From Candidatus Woesearchaeota archaeon CG10_big_fil_rev_8_21_14_0_10_32_9 (lineage in GTDB: Archaea; Nanobdellota; Nanobdellia; Woesearchaeales; 21-14-0-10-32-9), in the NCBI GenBank assembly GCA_002762915.1, contig PCYF01000029.1, positions 1 to 39,941 of the forward strand: 39,941 nucleotides of DNA, in the 5' to 3' direction. Under the pieces are notes generated by a model. The model ran no database searches. It saw only the letters and a list, made by a program, of their open reading frames with translations, and had not been told where the DNA came from. The position numbers were made by a program, and so were the translations under genes. This document shows, piece after piece, positions 1,222 through 18,202 of this stretch (its first letter is position 1; every line of letters starts with the position of its first letter).

Positions 1222-1268
1222 ATTGAATTTATAAAAAGATAATAAGATAACAATTATAGGCAAAAAAG

Positions 1269-2321
1269 ATGCGCCCAAAAAAACAAGATAACAAAGGTCA
1301 ACTCCAAATAAGTTTCAATTGGATATTTGTCCTCATTGTGGGCGCAATAATATTATTATTCTTTATAACTTCTTTAACAAAAGAAACTGACTCTTCTAAA
1401 ACTCAACTTGCGCAAAAAGCGAGTGCAAGATTAGACGCAGTTTTCGCAGTAATACAACAAAATCCAGATTCAGTACAAATTCACGACGCACCAAATTATG
1501 AACTAGATTTTTACTGCACCGAAGAAGGACATTACTACGCTCTTAAAGACAGTTCAACAAAAAACTACCTAGAAAACGAACACATCTTCGCACCAGAAAC
1601 GATAGGCAAAGCAAAATTAGTAAGTTGGACGAAAACTTTTTCAGCACCATTTCCAGTATCTTCCATACTATATCTTTCTGATGAAAAAAATCAGTATGTT
1701 TTCATAACTGCAGATCCAAAAATTGAAAAACTCTATGAAGATTTTCCAGATAAATTTTCCAAAAAAAATGTAACGTCCAGCCAGGACATAATTGATGAAG
1801 GGTTTAGAAAATATATTATAATAACTGATGCATTGCCTGTAGCATCAAACATAAACAATGAAGTTAGAAAAAAAACTCAAGCAATAATAGTTGTATCTAG
1901 TGAGACTGCTTCTGATGTGTATGGATATGGAAACTTAAAATATTATGAGGAAGGATCATCTACATCAATAAATAAACCATATGTAGGTCAAGAACTTTTA
2001 TTTGCAGGAATCGTTTCCGGAAATTCAGAATTATATTCGTGCGGACTAAGTAAAGTTCTGGAAAAGACAAAAATAGTTGCGCAAACTAACTTACTAAGAA
2101 CACAAGCATTGAAAGACCAATACGATTTAACATACACCGGAAGATGTTCAACGTTCTACGGTTTAGTGACCCAAGGATATATTCAAAATCTCACAGAATC
2201 AGCAAGCAACTTTGAGACTTCAGATACAACTAAGAACTACAAGAAATTTTACGATTCAATGACTGATTTACAAAGAGTAAACGAAAATATATTGAGAAGT
2301 GATTGTACATTATTATACTGA
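1269..2321 (+). CDS. pilin-like (class III signal) membrane protein
   Basis: N-terminus KKQDNKGQLQISFNWIFVLIVGAIILLFF. Confidence 0.7.
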   Translation: MRPKKQDNKGQLQISFNWIFVLIVGAIILLFFITSLTKETDSSKTQLAQKASARLDAVFAVIQQNPDSVQIHDAPNYELDFYCTEEGHYYALKDSSTKNYLENEHIFAPETIGKAKLVSWTKTFSAPFPVSSILYLSDEKNQYVFITADPKIEKLYEDFPDKFSKKNVTSSQDIIDEGFRKYIIITDALPVASNINNEVRKKTQAIIVVSSETASDVYGYGNLKYYEEGSSTSINKPYVGQELLFAGIVSGNSELYSCGLSKVLEKTKIVAQTNLLRTQALKDQYDLTYTGRCSTFYGLVTQGYIQNLTESASNFETSDTTKNYKKFYDSMTDLQRVNENILRSDCTLLY

Positions 2322-2350
2322 ATCAGATTAAATAATATTTGAATAAATAA

Positions 2351-2863
2351 TTGAGATTGATTAAATTGAATATAAGTAAAAAAGGACAAATACAAAGCGG
2401 AGAAACCGTAACAGTAGTTATAATTCTAATAATTTTAATAGTGCTCGGAATAGTTTACGCAGCGAATTCAAAGATAGCGGGATTACAAAAAGACAACGAA
2501 AAACAAAAAGAAATAGATGGAATGAAAATCGCAGTACTTGCTGCAGGAATGGACGAATTAAAATGCTCAGTATATTCTGCTAAAGTAAGTACTTGTCTAG
2601 ATTTGTACAGACTTTCCGCATTCAGTGAAACTGTGAGTCAGAATTTATATTCCTCAAAAGAATATTATTTCAACACATTTAGAAACTCGAAGATAGAAGT
2701 AAACATAATAGTAAACGATACGTATGTAGAGAACATAGTGTTATACGACTTTAATAATTCTGAAAATAAATCCTCTTCTCCAATATTTTTCCCATTAACA
2801 GTATCGGATCCAGTTTCAAAGATAAATTATTTTTCAATAATGGAAGTAAGAACATACAACTAA
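2351..2863 (+). CDS. pilin-like membrane protein
   Basis: ISKKGQIQSGETVTVVIILIILIVLGIVYAAN; TTG start, with an alternative in-frame TTG at 2366. Confidence 0.65.
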   Translation: MRLIKLNISKKGQIQSGETVTVVIILIILIVLGIVYAANSKIAGLQKDNEKQKEIDGMKIAVLAAGMDELKCSVYSAKVSTCLDLYRLSAFSETVSQNLYSSKEYYFNTFRNSKIEVNIIVNDTYVENIVLYDFNNSENKSSSPIFFPLTVSDPVSKINYFSIMEVRTYN

Positions 2864-2880
2864 AATAACTAAAAACAAAA

Positions 2881-3378
2881 ATGAACGAAAAACAAATAAG
2901 AAAAAAAGGACAAATAGAAATAATGGGATTGCTTGTAATAGTAATACTCATAAGTTTAGTTATTTTCTTTTCTCTTTCATTTAACTTAAAAAATTCTGTA
3001 AATGAAGCACCAGTAAAACAAGATTTCAAAGATGCACAAACCACAGGAAATTTCGGAACTACTCTTTTGGAAACAACAACAAATTGTTCAAGATCTATCA
3101 GAGACCTTTTGAGCGACTGTGCATTTACACAAGAAGTAAATTGTGCAGGCCAAACTTCTTGCCAGCTTGCAAATAATTCAATAAACCGAATTTTAGAAGA
3201 GACGCTAGATAAGTGGAACTACAACTATACCTTACAAATCTCAAGTGATTCTGAACTTGTAACAGATTTTAACAAAACTGGCTGTGACCCTGCTAAAACT
3301 AAAAGTGTAACTACAGATATAACTCCCTTTGGAACAACCTTTAGTTCAATGAAATTGACTCTAAAAATCTGTAGATAA
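2881..3378 (+). CDS. pilin-like membrane protein
   Basis: RKKGQIEIMGLLVIVILISLVIFFSLSF. Confidence 0.7.
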   Translation: MNEKQIRKKGQIEIMGLLVIVILISLVIFFSLSFNLKNSVNEAPVKQDFKDAQTTGNFGTTLLETTTNCSRSIRDLLSDCAFTQEVNCAGQTSCQLANNSINRILEETLDKWNYNYTLQISSDSELVTDFNKTGCDPAKTKSVTTDITPFGTTFSSMKLTLKICR

Positions 3379-3399
3379 ATCCTTAAATTCTTAGAAAGA

Positions 3400-3407
3400 T
3401 TTATATA
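3400..3407 (+). promoter_or_regulatory. TATA-like box upstream of the six-Cys pilin-like genes
   Basis: tttatata about 45 nt upstream of the ATG at 3452. Confidence 0.5.
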
Positions 3408-3451
3408 GGCCTTTCGATGATATAAGAAAATACTCTTAAGAGGTGTTACTG

Positions 3452-3712
3452 ATGAAAAAAGGAGAATTAAGCGTTAACATAATAATCGTGGCCGCAATAG
3501 CACTTATTATACTAGTTATTTTAGCAGTATTATTATTTAAAACAGGAAATGACCTGAGATTGGGAACTTCTTGTCAAGGATTACAAGGAATTTGTCAACC
3601 ACAAGAACTAGGATGCTCAGATTTAAATGATCCTGATGGCGGAATAACTTATATACAACACATGACTGCAAAATGTACATCAAATTCAGATGTTTGTTGT
3701 ATTAAACAATAA
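3452..3712 (+). CDS. small pilin-like protein with six-Cys C-terminal microdomain
   Basis: MKKGELSVNIIIVAAIALIILVILAVLLF; SD-like aggtg at 3441 favours ATG 3452 over the GTG 3443 in the ORF track; C..C..C..C..CC pattern. Confidence 0.7.
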   Translation: MKKGELSVNIIIVAAIALIILVILAVLLFKTGNDLRLGTSCQGLQGICQPQELGCSDLNDPDGGITYIQHMTAKCTSNSDVCCIKQ

Positions 3713-3730
3713 ATTTAGAGGTGTAAACTC

Positions 3731-3982
3731 ATGAAGAAAGGAGAATTAAGCGTTAACATACTGATTGTAGCGGCTTTAGCCCTTTTAATTTTAATAATAC
3801 TTGTAGTGTTATTAGGAAAGAGCACAAAGAACCTAGATACAGGACTTGATTGTGTACAAAAAGGCGGAAAATGTGTTCCAAGTTTGACTTGTCCAGTAGG
3901 ACAAAATATTCCTGAAGGGGTATGTGCACAAAGCTCATCTGCAACATACGAGTGTTGTAAACTTCTAGCAACAGGAGAATAA
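3731..3982 (+). CDS. small pilin-like protein with six-Cys microdomain, paralogue of the preceding gene
   Basis: MKKGELSVNILIVAALALLILIILVVLL; gaggtg SD; same cysteine pattern. Confidence 0.75.
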   Translation: MKKGELSVNILIVAALALLILIILVVLLGKSTKNLDTGLDCVQKGGKCVPSLTCPVGQNIPEGVCAQSSSATYECCKLLATGE

Positions 3983-3985
3983 ATA

Positions 3986-4738
3986 ATGAATAGAAGGGGA
4001 ATGGGTTGGGAAACAATACTTTCTATAACTATTTTAATTGCAATTATAGTAATAACATTCGGAATTCTTACGAATACTTATGCTGGTTGGAAACTAGTAA
4101 AAGACGACTGTAAAGGCACTTGTAGAATCTCTACTACTTGTGAAGTCGGAGAAACAAAAATGAGCGAAACTTGTTACAAGGCCGGAAAAAAACAGGATGG
4201 AATTTGCTGTTTATCTTTGGACGATCTTCAGAACAAGAATTCTTCAAATTCTACAAACTCTGCATCTAATAGTAATTCTAACGGCAATTCAAATAGCAAC
4301 TCTAATGGCAACTCAAATGGTGCCTCTAATTCTGGAGGAACAACTACGACTGGTCAAGGAACTCCAATTATAGAAATTAGAAAAGGTCAAGATGATGTAA
4401 CCAAAATACTTGGAGGAACAACTCAAACTTTAACAGCGGGTCAAACATACAATTACAGAGTATGGGCAGCTCAACAAGATCATCTGTATTGCACAATAAA
4501 AATGCTAAATTCTTCAAATTCTGAATTAACTCAAGTACAAGGAATGAGTCTTCAAATGATAGATGCACCATGTTCAGATGCTGCAAATTCAAATTCTAAA
4601 CAACAACAAATAGCTTTAACTCCTCAATTTATTTCTGGAGATCAAAACGTCTACAAAATGACTGTTGTTGTTCATAACTTGACTGGCGGAACTGTCGCTT
4701 CAACATCAGTTAACTTCCTGGTGCAACAAACCTCTTAA
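3986..4738 (+). CDS. pilin-like protein: six-Cys domain, Asn/Ser-rich linker, predicted beta-rich C-terminal domain
   Basis: MNRRGMGWETILSITILIAIIVITFGI; CKGTCRISTTCEVGETKMSETCYKAGKKQDGICC; NSNSNGNSNSNSNGNSNGASNSGG. Confidence 0.7.
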   Translation: MNRRGMGWETILSITILIAIIVITFGILTNTYAGWKLVKDDCKGTCRISTTCEVGETKMSETCYKAGKKQDGICCLSLDDLQNKNSSNSTNSASNSNSNGNSNSNSNGNSNGASNSGGTTTTGQGTPIIEIRKGQDDVTKILGGTTQTLTAGQTYNYRVWAAQQDHLYCTIKMLNSSNSELTQVQGMSLQMIDAPCSDAANSNSKQQQIALTPQFISGDQNVYKMTVVVHNLTGGTVASTSVNFLVQQTS

Positions 4739-4799
4739 ATTTCTTGAAATTGTATCCTGCTCTAATAAACCCAAGTTATTCTCAGAAGTTTACAAAACT

Positions 4800-4807
4800 T
4801 TTATATA
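4800..4807 (+). promoter_or_regulatory. TATA-like box
   Basis: aaacttttatatactc about 32 nt upstream of the ATG at 4839. Confidence 0.55.
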
Positions 4808-4838
4808 CTCGTGAAGACAAGAGGAACATAGAGGACAA

Positions 4839-4937
4839 ATGAGCATATCTTTAAAAGTACTGTCGGGATTGATCATAGCAGGAATTCTGATAACTTTACT
4901 TGTGCTAATAACTCTTAAGATGGTGGGAAATGTCTAA
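4839..4937 (+). CDS. 32-aa single-TM microprotein
   Basis: MSISLKVLSGLIIAGILITLLVLITLKMVGNV*, not in the ORF track because of length; preceded by a TATA box; its end overlaps the next ATG (4930) by 8 nt. Confidence 0.6.
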   Translation: MSISLKVLSGLIIAGILITLLVLITLKMVGNV

Positions 4938-6378
4938 ATCTATTAATAAAAAAGGGGAATCAGCGTCTGCACCTGAAGTTCCTGTGGAATTACTACTTTG
5001 GATTGCAGGATTTCTAATAATCTTATCTGTAATATATATAATAATAAACTCAGGCTCTACCGCGGCTCAAGAATCAGTGTGTAGAGATAGTGTAATAATA
5101 AAAGGAAAAGCAAATCTGGTAATAAATAACATAGAAGTCTTTTCTAAAGCCACGCCTCTGATTTGCGAACCAATAGATAAAGGAAATCTTGATTCAGACA
5201 GAGAAACAATAAAAAGACAAATAGCTGACATGGCTGCTCAATGTTGGTGGATGTATGCTGAAGGAGGAATAACTGATCTTTTTGACAGTACTCAAAATCA
5301 AAAAGGATGCGGGGTATGTTATTTTTTCTCAATAAGAGATAATTTGGATGAAGGTCAAAAAAATAAAACATTCTTTCAAGAACCTGCGCGAAGTCCAAAG
5401 TTTATTTCTTCTCAAGAACTATACAACTACATGATGGGAAATAATTACAATGCAAAACTATTGTCAGGGGGAGGAACCATAAATTATGTAGGAGATATTT
5501 ATGAATTTGAACATGAAATTGTTTTGCCTCCATCTGTTCAAGAAGTAAGATTAAGTCAAATTCAATATATTTCTGGAGACTACTTAGAAGATTTTTCAGG
5601 AGTAATATCTCAAGAAACAAAAAACAAAGTAAGAGAAATAGGAAATCATTTACTGGAGAAAGATGCAGGAAGTCTTCTTGTTCTAGTTGCGGACAAATTT
5701 GATTCGCTTGACAAATCGAGAGCAAGAAGATTCATAGAAAACATAGGCCTTAACACGGAAAAAGACAAATATGATGCGCTTCTTGTTTTAATAGATTTAG
5801 ATTCAAGCAAAATACGAATACAAATGGGTGCGGACTTAGAAAAATATGTTAATGAATACGACCTAAGTAATATGATGAGCCAAGCATTTGCAGGAGAAAT
5901 AGTTTCAAATGAAGATCTAAATAATAGAATAGTAGAATTACTTAAAAAAATAGAGGATAAATTGGCTGGTGAATATGATTATTTAGCACATCTAGGTATT
6001 GACAGCAGATCATACTATGCATACATTTCAAATAGAGGAACAACTTTTTCAATTGTTGATCACATAGTTTCAGAGAAAAAATATGTTGTTGCATATATGA
6101 GTAGTAGCAGTCAAACAACTTGGTTAGACGGTATATTAGCAAATCCCGGATCAACTGCGGCGGCCACAGGAGTTGCAGCATTAAGTGCTGCAATAATTTA
6201 TTTTACGGGCGGAACAACGACAAAGTTTGTTCTAGCTGCGGATGTAATTGCATTTGGAAGTTCAGAAACTCTGGGAGATGGTTTAAATGCAATATTAGGA
6301 AATGTTAAAACAGATAGACCAAATTATATACTAGTAACAAGAGCATCAGAAGTATCAAGTAACTGCAAAGTTGATTAG
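4930..6378 (+). CDS. class III-signal-like membrane protein with TPM (DUF477-like) domain
   Basis: INKKGESASAPEVPVELLLWIAGFLIILSVIYIIINSG, then a TPM-like segment GDYLEDFSGVISQETKNKVREIGNHLLEKDAGSLLVLVAD...DKYDALLVLIDLDSSKIRIQMGADLEKYVNEYDLSNMM; second hydrophobic stretch near the C-terminus. Confidence 0.75.
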   Translation: MSKSINKKGESASAPEVPVELLLWIAGFLIILSVIYIIINSGSTAAQESVCRDSVIIKGKANLVINNIEVFSKATPLICEPIDKGNLDSDRETIKRQIADMAAQCWWMYAEGGITDLFDSTQNQKGCGVCYFFSIRDNLDEGQKNKTFFQEPARSPKFISSQELYNYMMGNNYNAKLLSGGGTINYVGDIYEFEHEIVLPPSVQEVRLSQIQYISGDYLEDFSGVISQETKNKVREIGNHLLEKDAGSLLVLVADKFDSLDKSRARRFIENIGLNTEKDKYDALLVLIDLDSSKIRIQMGADLEKYVNEYDLSNMMSQAFAGEIVSNEDLNNRIVELLKKIEDKLAGEYDYLAHLGIDSRSYYAYISNRGTTFSIVDHIVSEKKYVVAYMSSSSQTTWLDGILANPGSTAAATGVAALSAAIIYFTGGTTTKFVLAADVIAFGSSETLGDGLNAILGNVKTDRPNYILVTRASEVSSNCKVD

Positions 6379-6444
6379 TTAACGACTCGCTGCGCATTTA
6401 AATTAAATTAAATAAAAAATAAAAGAAATGAATGAGGACAAAAA

Positions 6445-6567
6445 ATGGACGTACCAATGCTTGCAATTTGGATAATAATTATAGCAATAGTTTTGGTAAT
6501 AATGTTTGGATTCATATTTCCAAACATTGTGAAAGAAATGACAGGATACCTAGGCGTATTATTTTGA
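6445..6567 (+). CDS. 40-aa single-TM microprotein
   Basis: MDVPMLAIWIIIIAIVLVIMFGFIFPNIVKEMTGYLGVLF*, not in the ORF track; ends 2 nt before the next ATG at 6570. Confidence 0.6.
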   Translation: MDVPMLAIWIIIIAIVLVIMFGFIFPNIVKEMTGYLGVLF

Positions 6568-6569
6568 AA

Positions 6570-7475
6570 ATGAACAAAAAAGGAATATTCGGTTTAGTCT
6601 TAAGTGTAGTTGGAGCACTATTAGTTTTTTTTCTAATATATGCTGCATTTTTACGACCTGAAATATATACTGATATGTGGGATTCAATATCTAACACATT
6701 CTCTCTACCCGAACAAGATCCATATCCTTGGGAAATAAACATAAATGCACAACGAGCACAAGCTATGGAATCATTTCAAGATATTGTAAAACAATTCAAC
6801 AGAACTGCGGAAAATCGCGCAGCATATGTTCCAGAAGATATACCTATTAGTGATACGAAAGGAAATTGTTTCGGAGGCTTTTCAGCTCTGCCCACATCAT
6901 TTTTTGATAATAAATTTTCAATAAGAATAAGAAAAGAGTCTACTGGGATGTCTTTACAACTAATGGAAACAAGAGAACTTGCTGATCAAGATCCAACAAA
7001 AAATAAAGTTGTAACAAGATTGCCTGCGAGCTCAAAGTATTACATCTCAAATTATTCTCCGTGCGTAATATATGATGCGAGTGCAGAAATATTACTAGAC
7101 CGGGCAGTAGTCAATTCAGATCTAGAAGGAATAATAGATAAATTTGGATTTCAACAAAATGTTGAAGGAATAAATCTTTATGAACCTGACAAAATAACCT
7201 TTTTTCTCAAACCAGACGGAACTCAAGATTACACAGTTGATTTCAAACCCGGAGAAGATAGATACACTTATTATATTTTCAAAGTACTTGATGATCATGG
7301 AAACTCATTATGTTTAATTCCAACAAGTGATAATTCTGTCTGTAATGTTGAAAACAAAGCAATAACTGAAGGATGCCTTGATAAAGAATCATCTAATGGA
7401 AATTTGTACAGTGCATTAACCGGAGATTTAAAAGGAGCAATATGTAGAGGGTACTCCTCTGCAGATTTGATATGA
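6570..7475 (+). CDS. pilin-like membrane protein
   Basis: MNKKGIFGLVLSVVGALLVFFLIYAAF; the ORF-track start at 6432 adds a low-hydrophobicity extension that is out of frame over the 6445-6567 microprotein. Confidence 0.75.
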   Translation: MNKKGIFGLVLSVVGALLVFFLIYAAFLRPEIYTDMWDSISNTFSLPEQDPYPWEININAQRAQAMESFQDIVKQFNRTAENRAAYVPEDIPISDTKGNCFGGFSALPTSFFDNKFSIRIRKESTGMSLQLMETRELADQDPTKNKVVTRLPASSKYYISNYSPCVIYDASAEILLDRAVVNSDLEGIIDKFGFQQNVEGINLYEPDKITFFLKPDGTQDYTVDFKPGEDRYTYYIFKVLDDHGNSLCLIPTSDNSVCNVENKAITEGCLDKESSNGNLYSALTGDLKGAICRGYSSADLI

Positions 7476-7543
7476 TCGAAAAGTATATGTGTATTTGTGA
7501 AAAAATAAAAATATGAAAATATGAAACTAATAAAGGTGATAAA

Positions 7544-7927
7544 ATGAATAAAAAAGGCGGAATGTGGAACATAGTGATTGGCGCATTTGCGGCGGTGCTT
7601 ATAATAATAATATATTTTACAATTGTGGGAAAAACAGACACAAACACAATAACTGATGCAAGTAACTCAATAACTGTAAATTCTGATGGAGATGAATTCA
7701 ACAACATGATAGATCCATGTCCGTGCGGTTCTCCTCCAAATCAAAATAATAAAAAAATATCTGTAGATGGTTACTTGTATTGCCAATCAGGATTTAGCGA
7801 AGAACAATGCAATAAAATAATAACTGAACAGAAGTTTGCAGGATTTGAAGTAAAAGAATATCGTGGAGAAAAATTATGCATTTACAAAAAGACGTCCGAA
7901 ATGAATAGTAAATGTCCTACAGTTTAA
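7544..7927 (+). CDS. pilin-like membrane protein
   Basis: MNKKGGMWNIVIGAFAAVLIIIIYFTIVG; SD-like aaggtgat upstream. Confidence 0.75.
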   Translation: MNKKGGMWNIVIGAFAAVLIIIIYFTIVGKTDTNTITDASNSITVNSDGDEFNNMIDPCPCGSPPNQNNKKISVDGYLYCQSGFSEEQCNKIITEQKFAGFEVKEYRGEKLCIYKKTSEMNSKCPTV

Positions 7928-7952
7928 GTGTCAAGAAATTTAGAGAATTACT

Positions 7953-8813
7953 ATGAGTAAAATTAATGAAAGAGGAAGAGTCAAAATAATTGGAAATAAA
8001 AGAGGAGGGTTGTACAATTCTTTAACTTCTCTAATTATATTTGGAATAATGTTGGCGGCAACCATTTTCTTGATAATAAACATATTTTCACAGAACAACA
8101 ACCAAAGCGATGAAAGTTTAAAATTACTAAAAACTACAATAGAAACTGTTTCTGAAACATCACTAAGTGAAAAATTCATAAGTATAGATATAGATAAAGA
8201 AACCGCGCTAATAGGCTTTAATCCTGGAGCTGATGCAAATTTTCAATACACTTTTCAGGGATTTACTCCCGAAGAAAAAAATGTATTCTTCATGAAAGGA
8301 TTCTTTATGGATAAACCTGACAAATGCAACATAGACAAAGCTTGCCTGTGCTTGTGCCGAGGATACAATTATATGACTAAAGCAGATTATCCTCAAATGA
8401 CTGTCCAAGATGCACACATAGTTTGTGAAAAAGAACTAGTATGTACAAGTCTTGAAGATGTGGAATTTAGAGATATGAAAATGCCAGATGTGTTTGATGA
8501 TAATATGGGCAGAACAGCAAATCTTCCTGATGGTGTGACTGAGAGAAAAGATCACTACTGGACAAATGGATTTATTATACTAAGATCTGATAAAATAGAC
8601 AACACTAAATATGAACAGTACATAATATCTACAACTACGAATGGTGGAAGAGGTGGAGGCGTTTCTCAAGTAAAAGTAAGTCATCCTCTTGTTGTTTCAG
8701 GATATATGGACTATTCTCCGTTACGATTCATAGATGCAGTAGTATACTCTGATGCTAACGGAAAAATAGGTGTTTGTTTAAAATCAAATTGTAATATTAC
8801 ATTATTTACATAA
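7953..8813 (+). CDS. pilin-like membrane protein, Cys-rich ectodomain
   Basis: GNKRGGLYNSLTSLIIFGIMLAATIFLIINIF; CNIDKACLCLCRGYNY. Confidence 0.7.
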   Translation: MSKINERGRVKIIGNKRGGLYNSLTSLIIFGIMLAATIFLIINIFSQNNNQSDESLKLLKTTIETVSETSLSEKFISIDIDKETALIGFNPGADANFQYTFQGFTPEEKNVFFMKGFFMDKPDKCNIDKACLCLCRGYNYMTKADYPQMTVQDAHIVCEKELVCTSLEDVEFRDMKMPDVFDDNMGRTANLPDGVTERKDHYWTNGFIILRSDKIDNTKYEQYIISTTTNGGRGGGVSQVKVSHPLVVSGYMDYSPLRFIDAVVYSDANGKIGVCLKSNCNITLFT

Positions 8814-8852
8814 GAAATATTCACATAAAAAATAAAAGAAAGTGGGGAAAGT

Positions 8853-9755
8853 ATGCGTTTAAACAAAAAAGGATCTGCAGATGTAGACAACACTTTACAG
8901 AAGAATCTTTTCATATTTGCAGAATTGGCTGTTTCAATGATTATCTTGATTGCTGCAGGATCAGTTGCAATAAATAAAATGCAAGATGCAGAAAATATGG
9001 TTTTAGCTAAAGATGTAGCATTTCTAATAGAGACAATAAGCGCATCACCTTACAAGTTATACTATTCTTATCCTGTTAATTTGGAAACAAAAACAATAAA
9101 TGTGGATGAAGGAAGTGTAACAATCTCCTCGACAAAAAATACGGTGACTGAAAAATTCATGCCCATGAGAGGAGTAAGTGTTCCCAGCTCAAAAATAAGA
9201 AACACTGTATCCGTAATGTTCTTTTTCTACGAAAACATGTTAACAATAGGAGAAGGTGGCGCATCGAGTGATGAAGAATATTGCAATTCACTTCCAATTC
9301 CTAACAAAGAAGATTTAGTTTTTGCAATAACATATTCTAGTGGTTCTACTGAAAAATACTTAGAAAAAATAAAAGAAACAATGGTTCTTTCAAATAAACC
9401 TGAAGATCATTTCTTTATAGGTGAAAAAAATAATGCGGACTTCATAATAAATTTAAAATTTAATGAAAATGCAGAAAATAATAATTTAACCATAAAGTAT
9501 GATGTGACAAAGACAGGATTGTCAAGAATAGTTTGTTATCTTAACTCAGGATTTGAAGGAAATCAAAACTTCAATGAGAAAGAAAAAATTAATGATGCTC
9601 AACAAGATAAAACCCTGGCTATGTTATTTGGATCTTTGGATAAATTAAAAGAACAAATGAATCAATCAGAACCTATAGATCCACAAGTGTACACTGAAAT
9701 GGAAAAATATGGTATAATAATATCTGATGCTCTAAAAAAAGGTGTTAAAAATTGA
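8853..9755 (+). CDS. pilin-like membrane protein
   Basis: LNKKGSADVDNTLQKNLFIFAELAVSMIILIAAG. Confidence 0.7.
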   Translation: MRLNKKGSADVDNTLQKNLFIFAELAVSMIILIAAGSVAINKMQDAENMVLAKDVAFLIETISASPYKLYYSYPVNLETKTINVDEGSVTISSTKNTVTEKFMPMRGVSVPSSKIRNTVSVMFFFYENMLTIGEGGASSDEEYCNSLPIPNKEDLVFAITYSSGSTEKYLEKIKETMVLSNKPEDHFFIGEKNNADFIINLKFNENAENNNLTIKYDVTKTGLSRIVCYLNSGFEGNQNFNEKEKINDAQQDKTLAMLFGSLDKLKEQMNQSEPIDPQVYTEMEKYGIIISDALKKGVKN

Positions 9756-10258
9756 ACAGAAAAAACAAATTCAAACACAAACTAAGTAAAAAAGGAGGAG
9801 ATACTGAAACAGATACTCAATTCTTCTGGACGTTCTTTGTAGTTCCAGCAATCATAATATTTTTAGCATTATCTATATATGTAATAAGTCTTCTATTAAC
9901 TAGCAAAGTCACAATTATAGAGGGGGTTAAAGACTCCGCATATGAATCAAGAGTTCTTGGTTCTCCAAATTGTTTTACGTATCAGGATGAAATAAGTGGA
10001 AGAACATACAATGGCTACATTGATTTAAAAAAATTTAATGACGAAAGATTTAGAGAATGTTTTAGTACAAAAGAAACTGGACAAAGAGGAATAATTTTGC
10101 TTTTAAATTATGAAAATGATGAAATAGAGTTGACTACTGATAATATAAAATCAAAAATCAGCTCAACACAAAAAACAACAAAACTTCTACCAGTTCACGT
10201 CGTAGAAAAAAATGGAACAATTGCTCAAGGATTGATAAGTATAATTTATTGGTATTAA
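9752..10258 (+). CDS. pilin-like membrane protein
   Basis: TTG start overlapping the upstream TGA (ttga); LSKKGGDTETDTQFFWTFFVVPAIIIFLALSIYVISLLL. Confidence 0.7.
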   Translation: MNRKNKFKHKLSKKGGDTETDTQFFWTFFVVPAIIIFLALSIYVISLLLTSKVTIIEGVKDSAYESRVLGSPNCFTYQDEISGRTYNGYIDLKKFNDERFRECFSTKETGQRGIILLLNYENDEIELTTDNIKSKISSTQKTTKLLPVHVVEKNGTIAQGLISIIYWY

Positions 10259-10259
10259 T

Positions 10260-10808
10260 ATGAAACAAGAACTAAAGATTGTTGGAAAAAAAGGAACAAT
10301 GGATGATTTTGGGGAATTATTAGTTGGAGGAATCATGATAACTGTTCTTTTAGTTGTATTAATAATCTTAATAGCAGCTAATACCGATCAAAAGAAAATT
10401 CAAACAGATTTCGATTTGAAAATGCAAGAAACTGTGAAAATTACTAGACTTATGTTGGATCAAGAAACAGAAACCGGAGAAAAAATATTTGAGATAATAA
10501 TCAAACAAGAAGATACTAGAGACTACAAGCCTGCGGGTATTGCACTCAACAAAACACTTGACAAACTTTATGGAGCATCAAAAGGAACTTGGGTCTTAAT
10601 AATAAAGGATCCAAAAATAGAATATTGGGAATACTTAAAGAGTGATCCTTCTGTAAAAATTCCCAATGGTTTAACAAATCTTCCGGGAGTAAGTATTCCT
10701 GATGGAAATGGAGATATAATTAATGTAACAATAAAAAAAATAGACAAAACTGATGATTTTTTGCAGAACGTAAATTGGAATTTAGCGCTAAGCAGAGGAA
10801 TTCAATAA
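10260..10808 (+). CDS. pilin-like membrane protein
   Basis: VGKKGTMDDFGELLVGGIMITVLLVVLIILIAAN. Confidence 0.7.
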   Translation: MKQELKIVGKKGTMDDFGELLVGGIMITVLLVVLIILIAANTDQKKIQTDFDLKMQETVKITRLMLDQETETGEKIFEIIIKQEDTRDYKPAGIALNKTLDKLYGASKGTWVLIIKDPKIEYWEYLKSDPSVKIPNGLTNLPGVSIPDGNGDIINVTIKKIDKTDDFLQNVNWNLALSRGIQ

Positions 10809-10837
10809 ACTGATAATAAATATTTGGTAGTCAAAAC

Positions 10838-13800
10838 TTGAAAATGAAAAAAATAATAAACGGAAAAAAAGGTGCAATATTCTTCTACTTCTTAGCTTTA
10901 ATACTATTATTTATGATCGGATACTCAATAATATTCATGAATAAAAATGTCTCTAATCTTGATTACGTTGGTTCCTCTCAAAAAAAAATAATTGATGCCT
11001 ATGAGCTAGCAGAAAGATCTATGCTATATTTAGATATAAATGTAAAACTATCTGCGGATAGAGCAATAATAACTTCAAATCAAAAAGGAGGATTTACGGC
11101 CGGACAAGATGAAGATACAAAAAAAGAATATCCTTGCGGAATAATAGTATATCCTCTTATTAATGATGGACAAGAATTAGACAAATGTGCTCCTTCATAT
11201 TATGAATCGCTAAAAGAAGAATTCCTAAATGAATTCAAAAAAGCAACTTACGTATATCCAGAATTGCCTTTGTATTCCTACTCTTATGATGCGCTAGTAA
11301 GCAAAAATTCTGAAGATTTGCAATTAAAAATATTTTCCATATCGCCATTGAAAATTCCAATTTACTCTGAAACTGCGGCATACTATGATCCTCAACAAAT
11401 AGCACAAAAAACAGCATCTAATATACTTCCAGGAACATTTGTGGACACGCCCGAAGGATACAAAAAAACATCAGGATATTCAAGTTTATCTAGAGGATCA
11501 TCAGTTATTGATACGATAGTTATACATTATACTGCAGGATCGACAGTGCAATCCGCACTTGATACACTATCAAGTGCAGGTTTGAGTTATCACTTTATTA
11601 TCGATAAAGATGGAACAATATATCAGTTAGTTGAAGAAGATGAATCCGCACAACATGCAGGTTGTTATAGGAACGGTGTTAAAAAGAAAGGCTGTATAGA
11701 TGGTTACAACTCAAGATCAATAGGAATAAGTTTTGTCAACTTAGGATGGGATACTAAAAATAAAAATGTTCAATGCACTGACATTGCTGAAAAGTGTTGG
11801 GAAGTATATACGGACCAACAAATGAATGCTCTGGCAAAATTACTGATAGAAATACAAGAAAGACAAATTCAAAAAAGAAATAATCTAGAATTAAATGATG
11901 CAACAATAATATATCATTCAGACATAAGTCCGGATAAGCAAGATCCTGGTCCGGCGTTCGATAAACAAAAATTATTGAATTTGATACAAACACTAAAACA
12001 AAACGCAGGACAACCTACTTCTGCACCTAATTTAGCCACAAATACTAATACTCCGCAAACACAATCAACCAATTTTATAAAAGATCAAAAAGTAACAGAA
12101 CAAGAAGCAGCACAATTGCACGCATCAGTTAATTACGAGGACATAAAAAATAAAAAACCAACTTTCTCTGTTGTGCCAACTGTTTATTATACTGCAGTTT
12201 ATGAAGATACACAAAATTGGTGTTCTCCAACAAAAGGAGATTGTTTTACAAGCAAGTCGCAAATAGGCGATTTTTACAAAGACGCTTCCTCAAAACAATC
12301 ATGTTTGGCTGCGGGCGGAGGATTCTGTTGTATTAATAGAGCAGATAGAGGATTTTATGAGGACACACTATGTCAAGGGAGCGGAATATATGCAACCCAA
12401 CTTTACAAATACAATACTATTGAACCAACTCAAACCGCGAGCAAATCAATTAAGGGATACGTTCGTGGCCAAACTTCGTCAGGAACAGATCCTATAAGAC
12501 AATGGACTGTAGCTGTAAACACTGATCCTAAATCAAATTGTTATGTTCCAGAGAATACACTAATGTATGTATACTTTGGAGAAGGAAATTCTTGGAATGG
12601 AGTTTACAGAGCAGAAGATACAGGAGCTGCTTTTACAGGACAATGTAAAATGGATTTCTATGGTGGTGTTGGAGTTACACAATTAAATGATGCCATGAAA
12701 TATGTAGATCCTGCTAAATCTGCCCAAGTATTTTTCCTTGATCAAAATCTAAATTATGTTCCTTCAGGAGCTTTATCATCTAACGGAGTGTCTGCACAAA
12801 CAGGAGAAATAACAGTTCCATATACCTTTACATATTTGTTAAAAGGCGCATCAGAAATATATGATTTAACTCAAAAATTTGTAAAAGATACAATTTCTGA
12901 ATGTTCAAAAAAATCATATGATCAAAAACAAGAATGTCTAGATGATCAAATAAATGCAACTAAAACAACCAACTTAAAGGTTGATAGACTTTGTTTAGAA
13001 CCAGGCTTTTTACCAGCAATAAATTTAACTGATTTAGAAAAAACATATACTTCTTGGAATACAATAATTAAAGTTGCTGGACAAATAGATAGAAAAGATC
13101 CTCAGCAAACAACTACTACAACCTCAACAAGTAAGAAAGAAGGAGCAGTTGAATTTACAACGTCAGGCTATTTATATTTAACACAAATTCCGTCTAATGA
13201 GCCTATAGTTCTGAAATTCTTAGATGAAGATGCGTTGCCAGAAAACTTTAACTGGGCAGAATTTATTGCGCAAGATTACGTAGAATTTTCATATGTAAGA
13301 GTATTAAGTGTAGATAAAACAAAAAATGAAATAACAGTAAAAGCGTTTGATCCTCTAAAAGATAAGGACAAACAAGCAGAAGATATAAAGATAAATCCAG
13401 GGTATTTCCTTCGAGAAATAGTTAAAAGTACAGCTCTTGATCTTGCAGAGTGTTCAACATCAAAACAAGATGAATGTAAATGTAATATAACAATATGGGG
13501 CTTGTTTGAGAATGTGAGTTTTGCTGATGGCAAAATGTCTTTCACAAACATGAGTGAAGGTAATTATGTAGAATTATCCTTAAAGATATATGAACAAAAT
13601 GAAACGATATCAAACAACATTACAAATTCAAGTAATGTGGCGTTCACAAAGAAGCTGAAATATACTGAATTAAGATTTAAGAAAAATAAAGATGGAAGTT
13701 TCACATATATCAACGAAGATTATGAACCAAATCTTGCAACGTGTGTTCCAGAGAATAGATATTATTTGATGTGTATGGCTGAAAATAAAACATCTGCAAA

Positions 13801-13870
13801 GTCTGCAACTGCTCAAGCAGGAGTCGCAGTAATAGACGACGAAGCACTAAGATTTTCAATCAAAATATAA
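10838..13870 (+). CDS. large pilin-like-anchored protein with N-acetylmuramoyl-L-alanine amidase (Amidase_2/PGRP) and 3D-like (MltA C-terminal-like) domains
   Basis: NGKKGAIFFYFLALILLFMIGYSIIF; IDTIVIHYTAGS...SYHFIIDKDGTIYQLVEEDESAQHAG...SRSIGISFVN...IIYHSDISPDKQDPGPAFD; WTVAVNTDPKSNCYVPENTLMYVYFG...VYRAEDTGAAFTGQCKMDFYGGVG. Confidence 0.85.
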   Translation: MKMKKIINGKKGAIFFYFLALILLFMIGYSIIFMNKNVSNLDYVGSSQKKIIDAYELAERSMLYLDINVKLSADRAIITSNQKGGFTAGQDEDTKKEYPCGIIVYPLINDGQELDKCAPSYYESLKEEFLNEFKKATYVYPELPLYSYSYDALVSKNSEDLQLKIFSISPLKIPIYSETAAYYDPQQIAQKTASNILPGTFVDTPEGYKKTSGYSSLSRGSSVIDTIVIHYTAGSTVQSALDTLSSAGLSYHFIIDKDGTIYQLVEEDESAQHAGCYRNGVKKKGCIDGYNSRSIGISFVNLGWDTKNKNVQCTDIAEKCWEVYTDQQMNALAKLLIEIQERQIQKRNNLELNDATIIYHSDISPDKQDPGPAFDKQKLLNLIQTLKQNAGQPTSAPNLATNTNTPQTQSTNFIKDQKVTEQEAAQLHASVNYEDIKNKKPTFSVVPTVYYTAVYEDTQNWCSPTKGDCFTSKSQIGDFYKDASSKQSCLAAGGGFCCINRADRGFYEDTLCQGSGIYATQLYKYNTIEPTQTASKSIKGYVRGQTSSGTDPIRQWTVAVNTDPKSNCYVPENTLMYVYFGEGNSWNGVYRAEDTGAAFTGQCKMDFYGGVGVTQLNDAMKYVDPAKSAQVFFLDQNLNYVPSGALSSNGVSAQTGEITVPYTFTYLLKGASEIYDLTQKFVKDTISECSKKSYDQKQECLDDQINATKTTNLKVDRLCLEPGFLPAINLTDLEKTYTSWNTIIKVAGQIDRKDPQQTTTTTSTSKKEGAVEFTTSGYLYLTQIPSNEPIVLKFLDEDALPENFNWAEFIAQDYVEFSYVRVLSVDKTKNEITVKAFDPLKDKDKQAEDIKINPGYFLREIVKSTALDLAECSTSKQDECKCNITIWGLFENVSFADGKMSFTNMSEGNYVELSLKIYEQNETISNNITNSSNVAFTKKLKYTELRFKKNKDGSFTYINEDYEPNLATCVPENRYYLMCMAENKTSAKSATAQAGVAVIDDEALRFSIKI

Positions 13871-13937: not shown

Positions 13938-15080
13938 ATGATAAATGTGCCGCTAGAAGTAATAATAGAAAAAATAACTGAAAAAACAAATCTTTCTAAA
14001 CAAGAAATAGAGGCCAAAATAAAATCAAAGCTTGAACAACTTTCAGGACTTATAAGTAAAGAAGGAGCAGCGCACATAATTGCAAATGAGCTTGGAGTTA
14101 ATTTAGCACAAACTCAAGGAATAATTTCTATTAAAGATTTACTTGCAGGAATGAGAGATTTAGAAATAGCAGGTAAAGTCATAAAAAAATACGAACTTAG
14201 AACATTCGATACAGGAAAAAGAAAAGGACAACTTGCTAAATTCTTATTTGCTGATAAAACCGGAACAACAATAGTTGTGATGTGGAATGATCAAGCAGAA
14301 TTAATAAACACATTCAAGGAAGGAGACATTTTAAAGATTGCGGGAGCCACAGCCAGAAGTAATAATGGTAAGAATGAACTGCATCTATCTGAATCATCTA
14401 CAATAGAGACAAATCCTGCGGGAATAAAAATAGAAACGCAAGAAACTTCTTCAACGTATCAATCAAACTATAATAAACCTGTTTCTAAAAAAATATCAGA
14501 ATTAAATGAACAGGATTCAAATGTTGAAATATTTGCAACAATAGTACAAGTATTTGATCCAAAGTTTTTTAGAGTTGATTCAGAAACCGGAAAAAGAATA
14601 AAAGAAGAAGACTCTAAAGATTCAAGTAAAGAAACTTTCAACTACGTTTTAAATATATTTGTGGACGACGGTTCTGATAATGTAAGAACAGTTTTGTGGA
14701 AAAACCAAATAATAAACTTATTAGGTCAAACAGATCAAGAAATATTGAAATATAAAGATCATCCAGAAGAATTCGAAAAAATAAAAACAGATTTGTTAGG
14801 AATGATGGTTAAATTTATAGGAAGAGTATCAAAAAACGAATTATTTGGAAGATTAGAATTTGTTGCTAATGTTGTAATAAAAGATGTAAAACCAGAAGAC
14901 GAAATAAAAAAATTAGATTCTAGCGCTTCGGAAAAAAAAGAAACAGTAGAAGCTTCAAAACCCGAACAGAAAAAAGAAGTAAAAAAAGAAACGCCTAAAA
15001 AAGAAGAATCCAAAAAAGACGATTTAGATGATGATTTACTTTCTCTCGAGGATATAGAAGATTTAGAAGAAGATCTTTAG
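13938..15080 (+). CDS. archaeal RPA-like single-stranded DNA-binding protein with OB folds
   Basis: AGMRDLEIAGKVIKKYELRTFDTGKRKGQLAKFLFADKTGTTIVVMWNDQAELINTFKEGDILKIAGA is a typical archaeal RPA OB-fold; acidic C-terminal tail. Confidence 0.8.
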   Translation: MINVPLEVIIEKITEKTNLSKQEIEAKIKSKLEQLSGLISKEGAAHIIANELGVNLAQTQGIISIKDLLAGMRDLEIAGKVIKKYELRTFDTGKRKGQLAKFLFADKTGTTIVVMWNDQAELINTFKEGDILKIAGATARSNNGKNELHLSESSTIETNPAGIKIETQETSSTYQSNYNKPVSKKISELNEQDSNVEIFATIVQVFDPKFFRVDSETGKRIKEEDSKDSSKETFNYVLNIFVDDGSDNVRTVLWKNQIINLLGQTDQEILKYKDHPEEFEKIKTDLLGMMVKFIGRVSKNELFGRLEFVANVVIKDVKPEDEIKKLDSSASEKKETVEASKPEQKKEVKKETPKKEESKKDDLDDDLLSLEDIEDLEEDL

Positions 15081-15126: not shown

Positions 15127-17100
15127 TTACTTCTGAGTATATTTCTCCAAGAATTTAATTGCACTTATTCTTGACTTTCTTTTTACTTTTCTTGCAAGAT
15201 AAGGTTCTCTTAAATCGTTCTTTAACCAATTAGCGAAAACATTATTTGGTTTTGTAAATGTTTTATAATCTGCATCATCAATATTTCTCAAAGCATCCAA
15301 AAGATCAAGAAGATTTCTAACTACCACATTTTTGCTCTCCAATCTTAAGTATTGTTCTTCAGGAACATTAATTATGGCTAGTCCAGATTTCTTCTTTCCT
15401 CCACCAATTCTGCTTGCCGAATTAATCTTTCTAATAATTATAGTTATTGCAACAAGCACTATTGAAATACCTGCCAGAATAATCATTTCTAAGTAAAGCT
15501 TCTCAAAAGAAGAATTAAACAACATAGCTTTTCTAATTCCTTCAGAGGCAATAACATAAGGATTGTATTTAGCAATACTCTGAATGCCATGAGATAAAGT
15601 TTCTAAAGGTAAAATAAGATTTGAAAGAAAAATCAGAATAGAACCTATTCCTATAGACGTCATAGTCATACCTTCCGAGGTGCTGAAAATATTTCCAATT
15701 AGCATTCCTAAAGCTACAGACATAGTTATTCCCAAGAATAACATTGCTGCACTAATTCCAAGATTCGAAAGTACAGGAACCTTCAAAGCAAAATAAGCTA
15801 ATACTAAAATTGTGATTGTTTGAATTAAGATTATAATTAATGCAGTTAGATATGTTGAAAAAATAAATAATCCATCTCTTGTAGGTGTTGTGAAATTTCT
15901 AAACATAGCTCTTGAATCCTTTTCAATAAAAACAAGGGTACTAGAAAGCATCATTCCAACAAAAAGAATAACTAACATTAACAAATAAGGAAATGCATAA
16001 GTTGTTTTATTATTCTTTGAGGATAAAGTTTCTACTTTTGTGCTAACTGGATTAGAAATACTTCCAGATGTTGTGAAGTTAAATGCATTGATTTTGTTCA
16101 TTACATTTTCTTGTCTGGTTTTAATGTTTGCAAGATTAGTGTGAATAGTATTAAGATTAGAAGACATGGAAGAAACACTTGACAATACTGAAGATTTTAC
16201 ATCACGAGCATCACTTAATTTATCTTGTAAATCTTTTACTCCATCCTCAGCATCTTGTATGGTGCTCAAAAGAGTTGTTAAATTTGAACTAGTGTTAGTA
16301 ACAAGAAGTAATGTTTCATTTAGTGCATCTAATTTGGTTACAAAAGAATCTTTTTCAGCTAGTACAAATCCTTTGGACTCAATCTCGTCAACCAAATTAT
16401 ATCCTTGAGTGAGAGTGGCCTGAGCATCTGCTTTTAAGCTTGTGAAATCATCATCAACAGAATTACCAATATCAGTAACTCCATCAAGATTAAAATCATC
16501 TTCACTCACATCCAAATTATTTAAAGAAGATTTAGAGGAATCAGAAAGACTTTTTGAGGACTCTGCTAACGATTTCGCTTCATCAGCAAGTCTTAAACTT
16601 TCCGAAACTTCAAGTGAAGAAACAGAAACAATCGTAAGAAGATCACTAGTTAATTCATCACTAACTTCCTGACTCTCATTGCCAAGATTTAAAGTCAAAT
16701 CAGCAATTAACTGATAAACAAAATTTGTTCTAGAATTATCAACATAAAATCTAATTTCATTTGTTTTATTATTTTCCAACACAAAATTATCCGGAAAAAC
16801 TATGCAAGTTACAGTCAAACCATCTTTAATAGAATTAATACAAGAATCATTGGTATCGAAATAGATAAGATTATTTTCAGTGGTGTTTAATTGTTCTAAG
16901 TATCTTTGTGTTAAAAGATTAGATTCAGAAACCTTTACACCTATGTTTAGGGTATTTTGAGTATCATCTGTGAAACTTACACCAATTATTAAAACAATTA
17001 AAAGAGGCGCAAATAGTACTACTACTGCAGATCCTTTAGATCTTATTAGCAATTTAAAATTTTTAATTAGTGTTCTGAATAACTTCATCTTTAGCACCAT
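15127..17100 (-). CDS. ABC-2-type transporter permease with long extracytoplasmic coiled-coil
   Basis: N-terminal TM after MKLFRTLIKNFKLLIRSKGSAVVVLFAPLLIVLIIG, C-terminal cluster of TMs, Ser/Leu-rich helical loop between; start may be the second Met (MKLFRTL). Confidence 0.8.
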   Translation of the reverse strand: MVLKMKLFRTLIKNFKLLIRSKGSAVVVLFAPLLIVLIIGVSFTDDTQNTLNIGVKVSESNLLTQRYLEQLNTTENNLIYFDTNDSCINSIKDGLTVTCIVFPDNFVLENNKTNEIRFYVDNSRTNFVYQLIADLTLNLGNESQEVSDELTSDLLTIVSVSSLEVSESLRLADEAKSLAESSKSLSDSSKSSLNNLDVSEDDFNLDGVTDIGNSVDDDFTSLKADAQATLTQGYNLVDEIESKGFVLAEKDSFVTKLDALNETLLLVTNTSSNLTTLLSTIQDAEDGVKDLQDKLSDARDVKSSVLSSVSSMSSNLNTIHTNLANIKTRQENVMNKINAFNFTTSGSISNPVSTKVETLSSKNNKTTYAFPYLLMLVILFVGMMLSSTLVFIEKDSRAMFRNFTTPTRDGLFIFSTYLTALIIILIQTITILVLAYFALKVPVLSNLGISAAMLFLGITMSVALGMLIGNIFSTSEGMTMTSIGIGSILIFLSNLILPLETLSHGIQSIAKYNPYVIASEGIRKAMLFNSSFEKLYLEMIILAGISIVLVAITIIIRKINSASRIGGGKKKSGLAIINVPEEQYLRLESKNVVVRNLLDLLDALRNIDDADYKTFTKPNNVFANWLKNDLREPYLARKVKRKSRISAIKFLEKYTQK

Positions 17101-18202
17101 CTTCTTTTGTGTCTGCTTTGTTTTTCTTATTATCTTCTTCGGGTTCTTTATCTTGCTTTGTTAAATTAGAGGGTTGTGATACGTTTTTCTGTTGATCTTT
17201 TTGTTTTGAATCTGAATTTTTATAATCGTTTTTCTTGTCGTTTAATGAAATAAATAACTGATCTAAACTAGGTTTAACAATTTTAATTTCTAGAACTTTT
17301 TCATTTCTTTTTTCAAGTTTACTCATAACGTTGCTAATTATCTTCTCAGGTTCTTTACACGTTAAAACTAATCGTCCACCAGTAACTTTGTGTTCAAGTA
17401 TATTCTTTTTGAAACATCGTTTCAAATAAGCGCCAGAAGATTCATAATTTGTAGGATACGTTTCAATAACTAATTCTTGATTTTTCAAATACTTACTCTT
17501 AAGTTCTTCAGGAGTCCCCTTATCAAAAACCATGCCGTCCTTAATTATAGCAATTCTAGTACAAAGAGTTTCAAGCTCATTCAAATGATGACTAGATAAT
17601 ATTACCGTAGTTCCTTTTTCATTAATTTGTTTCAACAAATCCCAGATATTATTTCTTAAAATAGGATCAAGATCTGCAGTAGGCTCGTCAAGAATAAGCA
17701 CTTGAGGATTATGAACCATGGCACAAGCAATGTCAAGTCGTCTTTCCATGCCTCCAGATAAATTCTTTCCCAAAATATAAGATGCATTATTAAGATTCAT
17801 TAATCTTAAGAGTGTTTGAACATTAGTTTGAAGAGTATCTAAAGAAAGATCATAAAGAGCTCCAAAATATGTTATGTTCTCTTTTACAGTAAGTTTCTCA
17901 TAAAAACTAGGAACTTGTGCTGCAAATCCGTAAACTCGTTTGAATTTTCTTTGTTGTCTGTAAACAGATTTGTAAATAACTTTATCAGTTCCTACCAATG
18001 CCGGTTCTTTAAACAAAACATCGCCAGAGTCAGACTTAATAAATCCTACAATACTATTAAGCAGAGTGGTCTTACCTGAACCACTGGAACCAATTATTCC
18101 AATTATCTCACCAGGATAAACATCTAACGAAATATCTCTTAGAACTTGCTTTCTACCATAGCTTTTAGAGACAGAATCAATCTTAAGTATAGGTGCTTCC
18201 AT
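17063..18202 (-). CDS. ABC transporter ATP-binding protein
   Basis: Walker A GSSGSGKTT, signature LSGGMERRLDIA, Walker B VLILDEPTADLDP, H-loop LSSHH. Confidence 0.93.
   Translation of the reverse strand: MEAPILKIDSVSKSYGRKQVLRDISLDVYPGEIIGIIGSSGSGKTTLLNSIVGFIKSDSGDVLFKEPALVGTDKVIYKSVYRQQRKFKRVYGFAAQVPSFYEKLTVKENITYFGALYDLSLDTLQTNVQTLLRLMNLNNASYILGKNLSGGMERRLDIACAMVHNPQVLILDEPTADLDPILRNNIWDLLKQINEKGTTVILSSHHLNELETLCTRIAIIKDGMVFDKGTPEELKSKYLKNQELVIETYPTNYESSGAYLKRCFKKNILEHKVTGGRLVLTCKEPEKIISNVMSKLEKRNEKVLEIKIVKPSLDQLFISLNDKKNDYKNSDSKQKDQQKNVSQPSNLTKQDKEPEEDNKKNKADTKEDGAKDEVIQNTN

What the first reader, a model, noticed from the sequence alone, without database searches (positions are those of the whole stretch)
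11500..12720. Peptidoglycan-amidase plus 3D-like domain on a pilin-like archaeal surface protein
The 1010-aa ORF contains a well-conserved Amidase_2/PGRP segment (about 11500-11965: IVIHYTAG, SYHFIIDKDGTIYQLV, HAG, SIGISFVN, HSDISPDKQDPGPAFD), keeping the candidate zinc ligands. A second stretch (about 12490-12720: AVNT..YVPENTLMYVYFG..AEDTGAAFTGQCKMDFY) resembles the 3D domain of MltA/Rpf-like lytic enzymes. Archaea lack murein, so two wall-hydrolase-type domains anchored by a pilin-like helix suggest an outward enzyme acting on bacterial walls (predation, competition or host contact). The alternative is a pseudomurein-like or non-catalytic glycan-binding role.
Basis: partly seen in the sequence, partly recalled or inferred. 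Interest (0 to 1): 0.88.

Follow-up and report, generated by a model that had tools for sequence, protein, structure and literature searches.

The report
Archaeal pilin-like bacterial-wall-cutting protein
A woesearchaeal (tiny archaeon) surface protein carries two enzymes that should cut the bacterial cell wall, and it sits in a fixed place in a pilus-like gene cluster where related archaea carry many other, unrelated bacterial-wall-cutting enzymes, so these archaea probably use it on bacteria they live on, feed on or compete with.

Summary
ORF 10838-13870 (1010 aa; likely start ATG 10844) has a strong Amidase_2 domain (aa 223-372, Pfam E=2.6e-26) with zinc ligands H230, H360, D369 plus K367 and Y251. 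Its 3D segment is below the Pfam cut-off alone (E=0.01), but the family profile and an AlphaFold model (pLDDT 94.5) both find only MltA lytic transglycosylases at the top; MltA Asp308 corresponds to D606. The genome is a Candidatus Woesearchaeota archaeon.

The larger result is the context. The ORF is the last gene of a conserved pilin-like cluster just before an RPA gene. Its ~190-aa N-terminal domain occurs in 292 of 359 genomes of the order. In 133 fetched loci the attached module varies: SLT, M23, Amidase_2, NlpC/P60, VanY/M15, 3D, M74, YkuD, Amidase_3, GH25 and others: unrelated folds acting on one substrate, murein, often a peptide cutter paired with a glycan cutter.

Best reading: a pilin-anchored enzyme pair that opens bacterial peptidoglycan on contact. 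Archaeal murein hydrolases are known; this cluster and slot I did not find described. Activity, filament assembly and target are untested.

The parts
10838..13870 (+). Slot gene: 1010-aa pilin-like protein with amidase and MltA/3D modules; TTG 10838 is the mechanical start, ATG 10844 is more likely
10865..10939 (+). Class-III-type signal motif KKG (aa 10-12) and hydrophobic helix (aa 13-34)
   Evidence: sequence; the same motif type in 128 of 132 slot proteins; helix aa 10-38 in the model
10844..11410 (+). Conserved N-terminal domain of the slot protein (aa ~3-191)
   Evidence: profile A1: 292/359 genomes of the order, 106/234 of the class sample; no solved-structure match
11504..11953 (+). 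Amidase_2 domain (aa 223-372); H230, H360, D369 zinc ligands; K367, Y251 catalytic candidates; S298 where AmpD has Glu
12143..12772 (+). MltA-type 3D domain (aa 436-645); D594 and D606 align with E. coli MltA D297 and D308
12818..13867 (+). C-terminal part (aa 661-1010) of unknown fold, shared only with the nearest relatives
748..10808 (+). Upstream pilin-like gene cluster (ORFs at 748, 1269, 2351, 2881, 3443, 3731, 3986, 4930, 6432, 7544, 7953, 8853, 9752, 10260), most with K/R-K-G/A plus a hydrophobic helix
   Evidence: synteny in relatives
4930..6378 (+). Cluster gene with TPM domain
   Evidence: Pfam E=4.9e-10
13938..15080 (+). RPA (replication factor A) gene, the conserved downstream marker of the slot
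15127..18202 (-). ABC transporter permease and ATPase, convergent with the cluster in this family

Best explanation
The protein is the effector subunit of a pilin-like surface apparatus. Its N-terminus is processed or anchored like a type IV pilin, which leaves about 970 residues outside the cell. The zinc amidase cuts the bond between N-acetylmuramic acid and the stem peptide, and the MltA-type domain cuts the glycan strand, so together they open bacterial peptidoglycan where the archaeon touches a bacterium. Shown here: both domains, their catalytic residues, the pilin-type N-terminus, the conserved cluster, and the exchange of murein enzymes in the same slot. Inferred: secretion, incorporation into a filament or its tip, enzymatic activity, and purpose (feeding on or attaching to bacteria, or killing competitors).
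For: Domains and residues. Same slot, many unrelated murein enzymes: Pfam tallies over 73 long slot modules give SLT 26, M23 24, Amidase_2 12, NlpC/P60 8, 3D 4, M74 2, VanY 2 and single cases of others, and over 99 short slot and downstream ORFs VanY 10, Amidase_2 7, SLT 6, 3D 6, M23 4, GH25 1 and others. Per locus at least 91 of 133: 71 by four local HMMs and 20 more by single Pfam scans. Enzyme hits fall in the slot ORF in 64 of 133 loci against 3 of 1120 other ORFs of the same loci. Catalytic residues kept in SLT (Glu 31/32) and M23 (His 28/31, Asp 29/31, second His 28/29) modules. Peptide cutter plus glycan cutter in one module in 19 loci by the four HMMs alone. Prepilin peptidase, pilus ATPase and two platform proteins in the genome. 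No Mur ligase in this genome.
Against: No activity or localisation data. The pilus genes lie on another contig (C52), not in this cluster. The globular N-terminal domain has no pilin match. 62 of 133 slot loci were missed by the four HMMs and about 40 of these remain without an assigned murein domain (some are truncated by contig ends, and not all were scanned singly). M23 and SLT genes also occur elsewhere in these genomes. A few slot amidases have lost ligands.
Confidence: 0.75

Rival explanations
1. Scavenging enzyme: a surface-bound hydrolase that digests peptidoglycan debris of dead bacteria for sugars and amino acids, with no attack on live cells.
For: The same domains would serve; Strock et al. 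(PMC12352652) leave scavenging open for archaeal peptidoglycan hydrolases; an ABC transporter pair lies next to the cluster in this family.
Against: An anchored, pilin-like presentation in a long conserved cluster is more than debris digestion needs; free secretion would do. The transporter pair is of the ABC-2 permease family, usually export (own knowledge), not a peptide importer.
Confidence: 0.3
2. Non-catalytic or weakly catalytic adhesin: the enzyme folds are kept to bind peptidoglycan during attachment to a bacterial host.
For: Castelle et al. (PMC8204110) propose attachment for large woesearchaeal murein-transglycosylase proteins; some slot amidase-like domains (L020, L059, L071, L080) have lost ligands.
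Against: Zinc ligands, Lys and MltA Asp are kept here; catalytic residues are kept in nearly all SLT and M23 slots.
Confidence: 0.15
3. The enzymes remodel a murein- or pseudomurein-like wall of the archaeon itself, for example to let a pilus through, as specialised transglycosylases do in bacteria.
For: In bacteria, secretion machines and pili use dedicated wall hydrolases (own knowledge); 44 of 119 genomes of the order have some Mur-ligase-family hit.
Against: This genome and the other two sampled from its family (G003, G007) have no hit; the archaeal classes known to make pseudomurein are Methanobacteria and Methanopyri (PMC12352652); VanY, M74 and SLT families act on murein bonds (own knowledge).
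Confidence: 0.05
4. Contamination, or a viral lysin or entry enzyme captured by the bin.
For: Amidase_2 and SLT are common phage endolysin domains (Amidase_2).
Against: Same gene order with RPA in dozens of genomes from many families; N-terminal domain in 81% of genomes of the order; no phage genes in the window ORFs scanned.
Confidence: 0.02

Closest known systems
AmpDh2 / AmiD type zinc N-acetylmuramoyl-L-alanine amidases (Amidase_2)
   Same: Same domain over its whole length, same zinc ligands and catalytic Lys
   Different: Archaeal; fused to a pilin-like N-terminus and an MltA-type domain; has Ser instead of the AmpD-type catalytic Glu and instead keeps the Tyr used by T7 lysozyme and PGRPs (residue roles from own knowledge)
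MltA lytic transglycosylase and short 3D proteins such as YuiC
   Same: Profile and fold matches, both conserved Asp
   Different: Shorter, Cys-rich, fused behind an amidase; TM-score to MltA only 0.33-0.51 (query-normalised)
Modular pilins of Streptococcus sanguinis type 4 pili (PilB, PilC)
   Same: A large functional module grafted onto a class III signal/pilin-type N-terminus, thought to be shown at the filament tip (PMC9934059)
   Different: Those modules are adhesins, not wall-cutting enzymes; no filament has been shown here
Archaeal modular peptidoglycan hydrolases (Woldo, Danwoldo; Strock et al. 2025)
   Same: Archaeal murein hydrolases predicted to act on bacteria
   Different: Those are free Tat-secreted enzymes with a known wall-binding domain; this one has none and is pilin-anchored (PMC12352652)
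Large murein-like lytic transglycosylase proteins of Woesearchaeota and Pacearchaeota (fam00969, Castelle et al. 2021)
   Same: Same organisms, same proposed target; some slot proteins with SLT may belong to it
   Different: The window protein has no SLT; the paper passages read do not describe the cluster, the shared N-terminal domain or the exchange of enzymes

Membership tests
Amidase_2 zinc amidase (AmiD/AmpDh2 type) | Family HMM score above the curated cut-off | tested here: met
   92.9 bits, cut-off 26
Amidase_2 zinc amidase (AmiD/AmpDh2 type) | Two His and one Asp/Cys zinc ligands plus catalytic Lys | tested here: met
   H230, H360, D369, K367 aligned with AmpDh2 and AmiD and invariant in ten relatives
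Amidase_2 zinc amidase (AmiD/AmpDh2 type) | AmpD-type catalytic Glu in the SIGIE motif | tested here: not met
   SIGIS (S298); Y251 of SYHF present instead, as in T7 lysozyme/PGRP (sequence; roles from own knowledge)
Amidase_2 zinc amidase (AmiD/AmpDh2 type) | Amidase activity on murein | not testable with these tools
   needs purified protein
MltA-type lytic transglycosylase (3D domain) | 3D HMM above the curated cut-off | tested here: not met
   window protein 16.5 bits, cut-off 23.8; related slot proteins 25.2 and 44.4 bits
MltA-type lytic transglycosylase (3D domain) | Relationship to MltA by profile and by fold | tested here: met
   eight best PDB profile hits are MltA, best 4e-4; fold search ranks 1-14 MltA-type, best 6.6e-6
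MltA-type lytic transglycosylase (3D domain) | Catalytic Asp (D308 of E. coli MltA) | tested here: met
   D606 via the profile alignment
MltA-type lytic transglycosylase (3D domain) | Complete two-domain MltA architecture | tested here: inconclusive
   alignment spans ~260 columns but at high rmsd; no MltA Pfam hit
Type IV pilin-like protein | Class III signal motif before a hydrophobic helix | tested here: met
   GKKG/AIFFYFLALILL; 128/132 slot proteins
Type IV pilin-like protein | Prepilin peptidase, assembly ATPase and platform protein in the genome | tested here: met
   Peptidase_A24, T2SSE, two T2SSF, on other contigs
Type IV pilin-like protein | Pilin fold of the globular domain | tested here: not met
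   no PDB match at E<=0.001; a pilin (PilJ) only at E=6.9; model confidence moderate
Type IV pilin-like protein | Assembly into a filament | not testable with these tools
   needs microscopy or biochemistry
Archaeal modular peptidoglycan hydrolase sensu Strock 2025 | Catalytic domain plus a known cell-wall-binding domain | tested here: not met
   Pfam finds only Amidase_2 and weak 3D

The most novel reading that the evidence does not exclude
An order-wide archaeal wall-breaching machine: a conserved pilin-like cluster, present in most Woesearchaeales and in related orders, with a dedicated effector position where sets of murein enzymes (a peptide cutter and a glycan cutter) are swapped in and out, implying that bacteria are the usual partners or prey of these archaea.
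Probability: 0.45. Interest if true: 0.92.

Novelty: new variant of a known kind. Interest (0 to 1): 0.82.

Why it matters
Whom Woesearchaeota live on is an open question, because they are mostly uncultured and the DPANN hosts known from culture are largely archaea (own knowledge). A surface position that is refilled again and again with unrelated enzymes for one bacterial-only polymer is genome-level evidence that bacteria are the target in most of the order. It turns the question into simple tests: does the slot protein cut sacculi, and which bacteria does each variant prefer. It also gives a marker (the N-terminal domain plus RPA) for finding new wall-cutting enzymes in archaea that a search requiring known wall-binding domains misses.

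Tried and rejected
Bacterial contamination or virus: rejected by synteny with RPA across families. Own-wall remodelling: disfavoured, no Mur ligase in this genome. Recent transfer of the amidase from bacteria: the tree puts the 20 woesearchaeal and 71 bacterial domains on two sides of one branch (SH-aLRT 85), unrooted, with several very long branches, so it gives neither donor nor direction; nearest bacterial matches are Bacteroidales at 36-39% identity. A search for a solved relative of the N-terminal domain found nothing. The exclusivity idea (hydrolases only in the slot) failed: M23 and SLT also occur elsewhere in the genomes. The idea that the fn3-bearing downstream genes carry hydrolases was not supported; the VanY is in the slot gene itself.

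Full report
Observation. The 1010-aa ORF at 10838-13870 carries Amidase_2 at 11504-11953. Its best solved relatives are AmpDh2 and AmiD. The zinc ligands H230, H360 and D369, and K367, are invariant in ten diverse woesearchaeal relatives. At the position of the AmpD catalytic Glu it has Ser (SIGIS), but the Tyr of SYHF is present; that is the pattern of T7 lysozyme and PGRPs (residue roles from my own knowledge). The second stretch scores only E=0.01 against Pfam 3D. Two further tests nevertheless place it with MltA: the alignment profile A5 and the fold of a high-confidence model, pLDDT 94.5, pTM 0.90. E. coli MltA D297 and D308 align with D594 and D606. That D308 is the catalytic Asp of MltA is my own knowledge; the D308A mutant structures appear.

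Organism. Close relatives of the amidase are recorded as Candidatus Woesearchaeota archaeon, mostly from CSSed/CSBr MAGs (that these are soda-lake samples is my own knowledge). RPA and Hjc in the window are archaeal. That the order is Woesearchaeales is inferred from these names; the genome handles themselves carry none.

Anatomy around it. Window 748-13870 is a run of about 15 co-directional genes; most begin with K/R-K-G/A followed by a hydrophobic helix. One has a TPM domain. The cluster ends 71 bp before RPA and, in this family, faces an ABC transporter pair. In the family, the amidase and 3D parts are one gene in the window genome and in G002 (L020), and two adjacent genes in G004, G005, G006, G007, G009 and G010 (in G004 no amidase was recognised in the first gene).

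The slot. The N-terminal ~190 aa recur at the same place in relatives with different C-terminal parts. A 32-row profile of it hits 292 of 359 genomes of the order. I fetched DNA for 148 loci; 133 contain the slot gene, and 86 show RPA downstream on the same strand within the fetched piece. Pfam tallies of the modules show SLT, M23, Amidase_2, NlpC/P60, VanY/M15, 3D, M74, CHAP, YkuD, Amidase_3, Glucosaminidase, GH25, VgrG3-like muramidase and polysaccharide deacetylase. Single-protein scans give combinations: Amidase_2+SLT, M23+3D; NlpC/P60+VgrG3-like, NlpC/P60+glucosaminidase, NlpC/P60+YkuD+deacetylase; Amidase_3+M74; VanY in eight short slots (two of them, L102 and L132, just under the VanY cut-off) and YkuD in one. 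By four local HMMs 71 of 133 loci have a murein enzyme and single Pfam scans add 20, so at least 91 (68%). Of the 71, 19 combine a peptide cutter with a glycan cutter.

Control. In the same 133 loci, the four HMMs hit 64 of 133 slot ORFs but 3 of 1120 ORFs outside the modules (Fisher p about 1e-65). The HMMs were trained on slot members and the loci were chosen by the slot domain, so the p-value overstates the case; the first loci were in addition found through similarity to the window protein, which favours amidase and 3D. The Pfam tallies do not depend on my HMMs. Genome-wide, M23 is found in 155/359 and SLT in 178/350 genomes, many at other loci, so the slot is a preferred but not the only site. 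Catalytic residues are kept in nearly all SLT and M23 modules.

Outside the order. In a class-wide sample the slot domain occurs in genomes of other orders, but mostly as a short protein, about 240-300 aa in the best matches. I looked at 11 such loci; most keep the cluster and RPA, and in four of them a different pilin-like gene just upstream carries the enzyme: 3D, SLT, M23, and Amidase_2+SLT. So the enzymes follow the cluster, not just one protein.

Machinery. The window's genome has a prepilin-type peptidase on C19 and a T2SSE ATPase with two T2SSF proteins in a row on C52. They are not linked to the cluster. The globular N-terminal domain has no solved-structure match, so pilin-like refers to the signal and helix only.

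Interpretation. Unrelated folds that cut different bonds of one polymer, exchanged in a fixed genetic position, point to murein as the substrate more strongly than any single domain does. The archaeon itself lacks Mur ligases by this search (the genome is 86% complete). An outward action on bacteria is therefore most likely. Whether it serves attachment, predation, competition or scavenging is open. Functionally it works like a modular pilin (PMC9934059) with wall-cutting modules; membership in the pilin family is not established.

Prior art. Castelle et al. 2021 (PMC8204110), Vigneron et al. 2022 (PMC9723730) and Strock et al. 2025 (PMC12352652) report murein hydrolases in DPANN and other archaea, some in Woesearchaeota. 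In the passages read and in seven searches of an open-access library I found no description of this cluster, its shared N-terminal domain or the exchange of enzymes; subscription journals and preprints were not searched.

Noticed in passing
L020:7244-10114 (G002), L059, L071, L080: Slot proteins with amidase-like domains that have lost metal ligands, next to a second enzyme domain (3D, M23 or SLT); possibly turned into a binding domain.
   Followed up: partly
G230:C2:14106-17854 and G230:C7:27559-28149: A genome of the same order with three Mur-ligase-family hits, two of them on the same contig stretch as an M23 hit; could be part of a murein-type pathway in an archaeon or an unrelated ligase family.
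   Followed up: no
window 20177-21787: 536-aa protein dominated by DUF285 repeats (E=1.3e-121), a repeat named from Mycoplasma proteins.
   Followed up: no
window 22599-24089: Right-handed beta-helix/NosD-like protein of 496 aa near the ABC transporter, probably a surface protein.
   Followed up: no
L136:1561-3534: Slot module with a GDSL lipase/esterase and no recognised murein hydrolase; a possible peptidoglycan O-acetyl esterase.
   Followed up: no
L091, L096, L107, L126, L132 (downstream of the slot): A second gene with fn3 domains between the slot (VanY-bearing in four of these five) and RPA in several genomes; possibly a partner or adhesin.
   Followed up: partly
G000 (own genome; position not listed): An SLT-family hit at E=1.9e-5 elsewhere in the window's own genome.
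   Followed up: no
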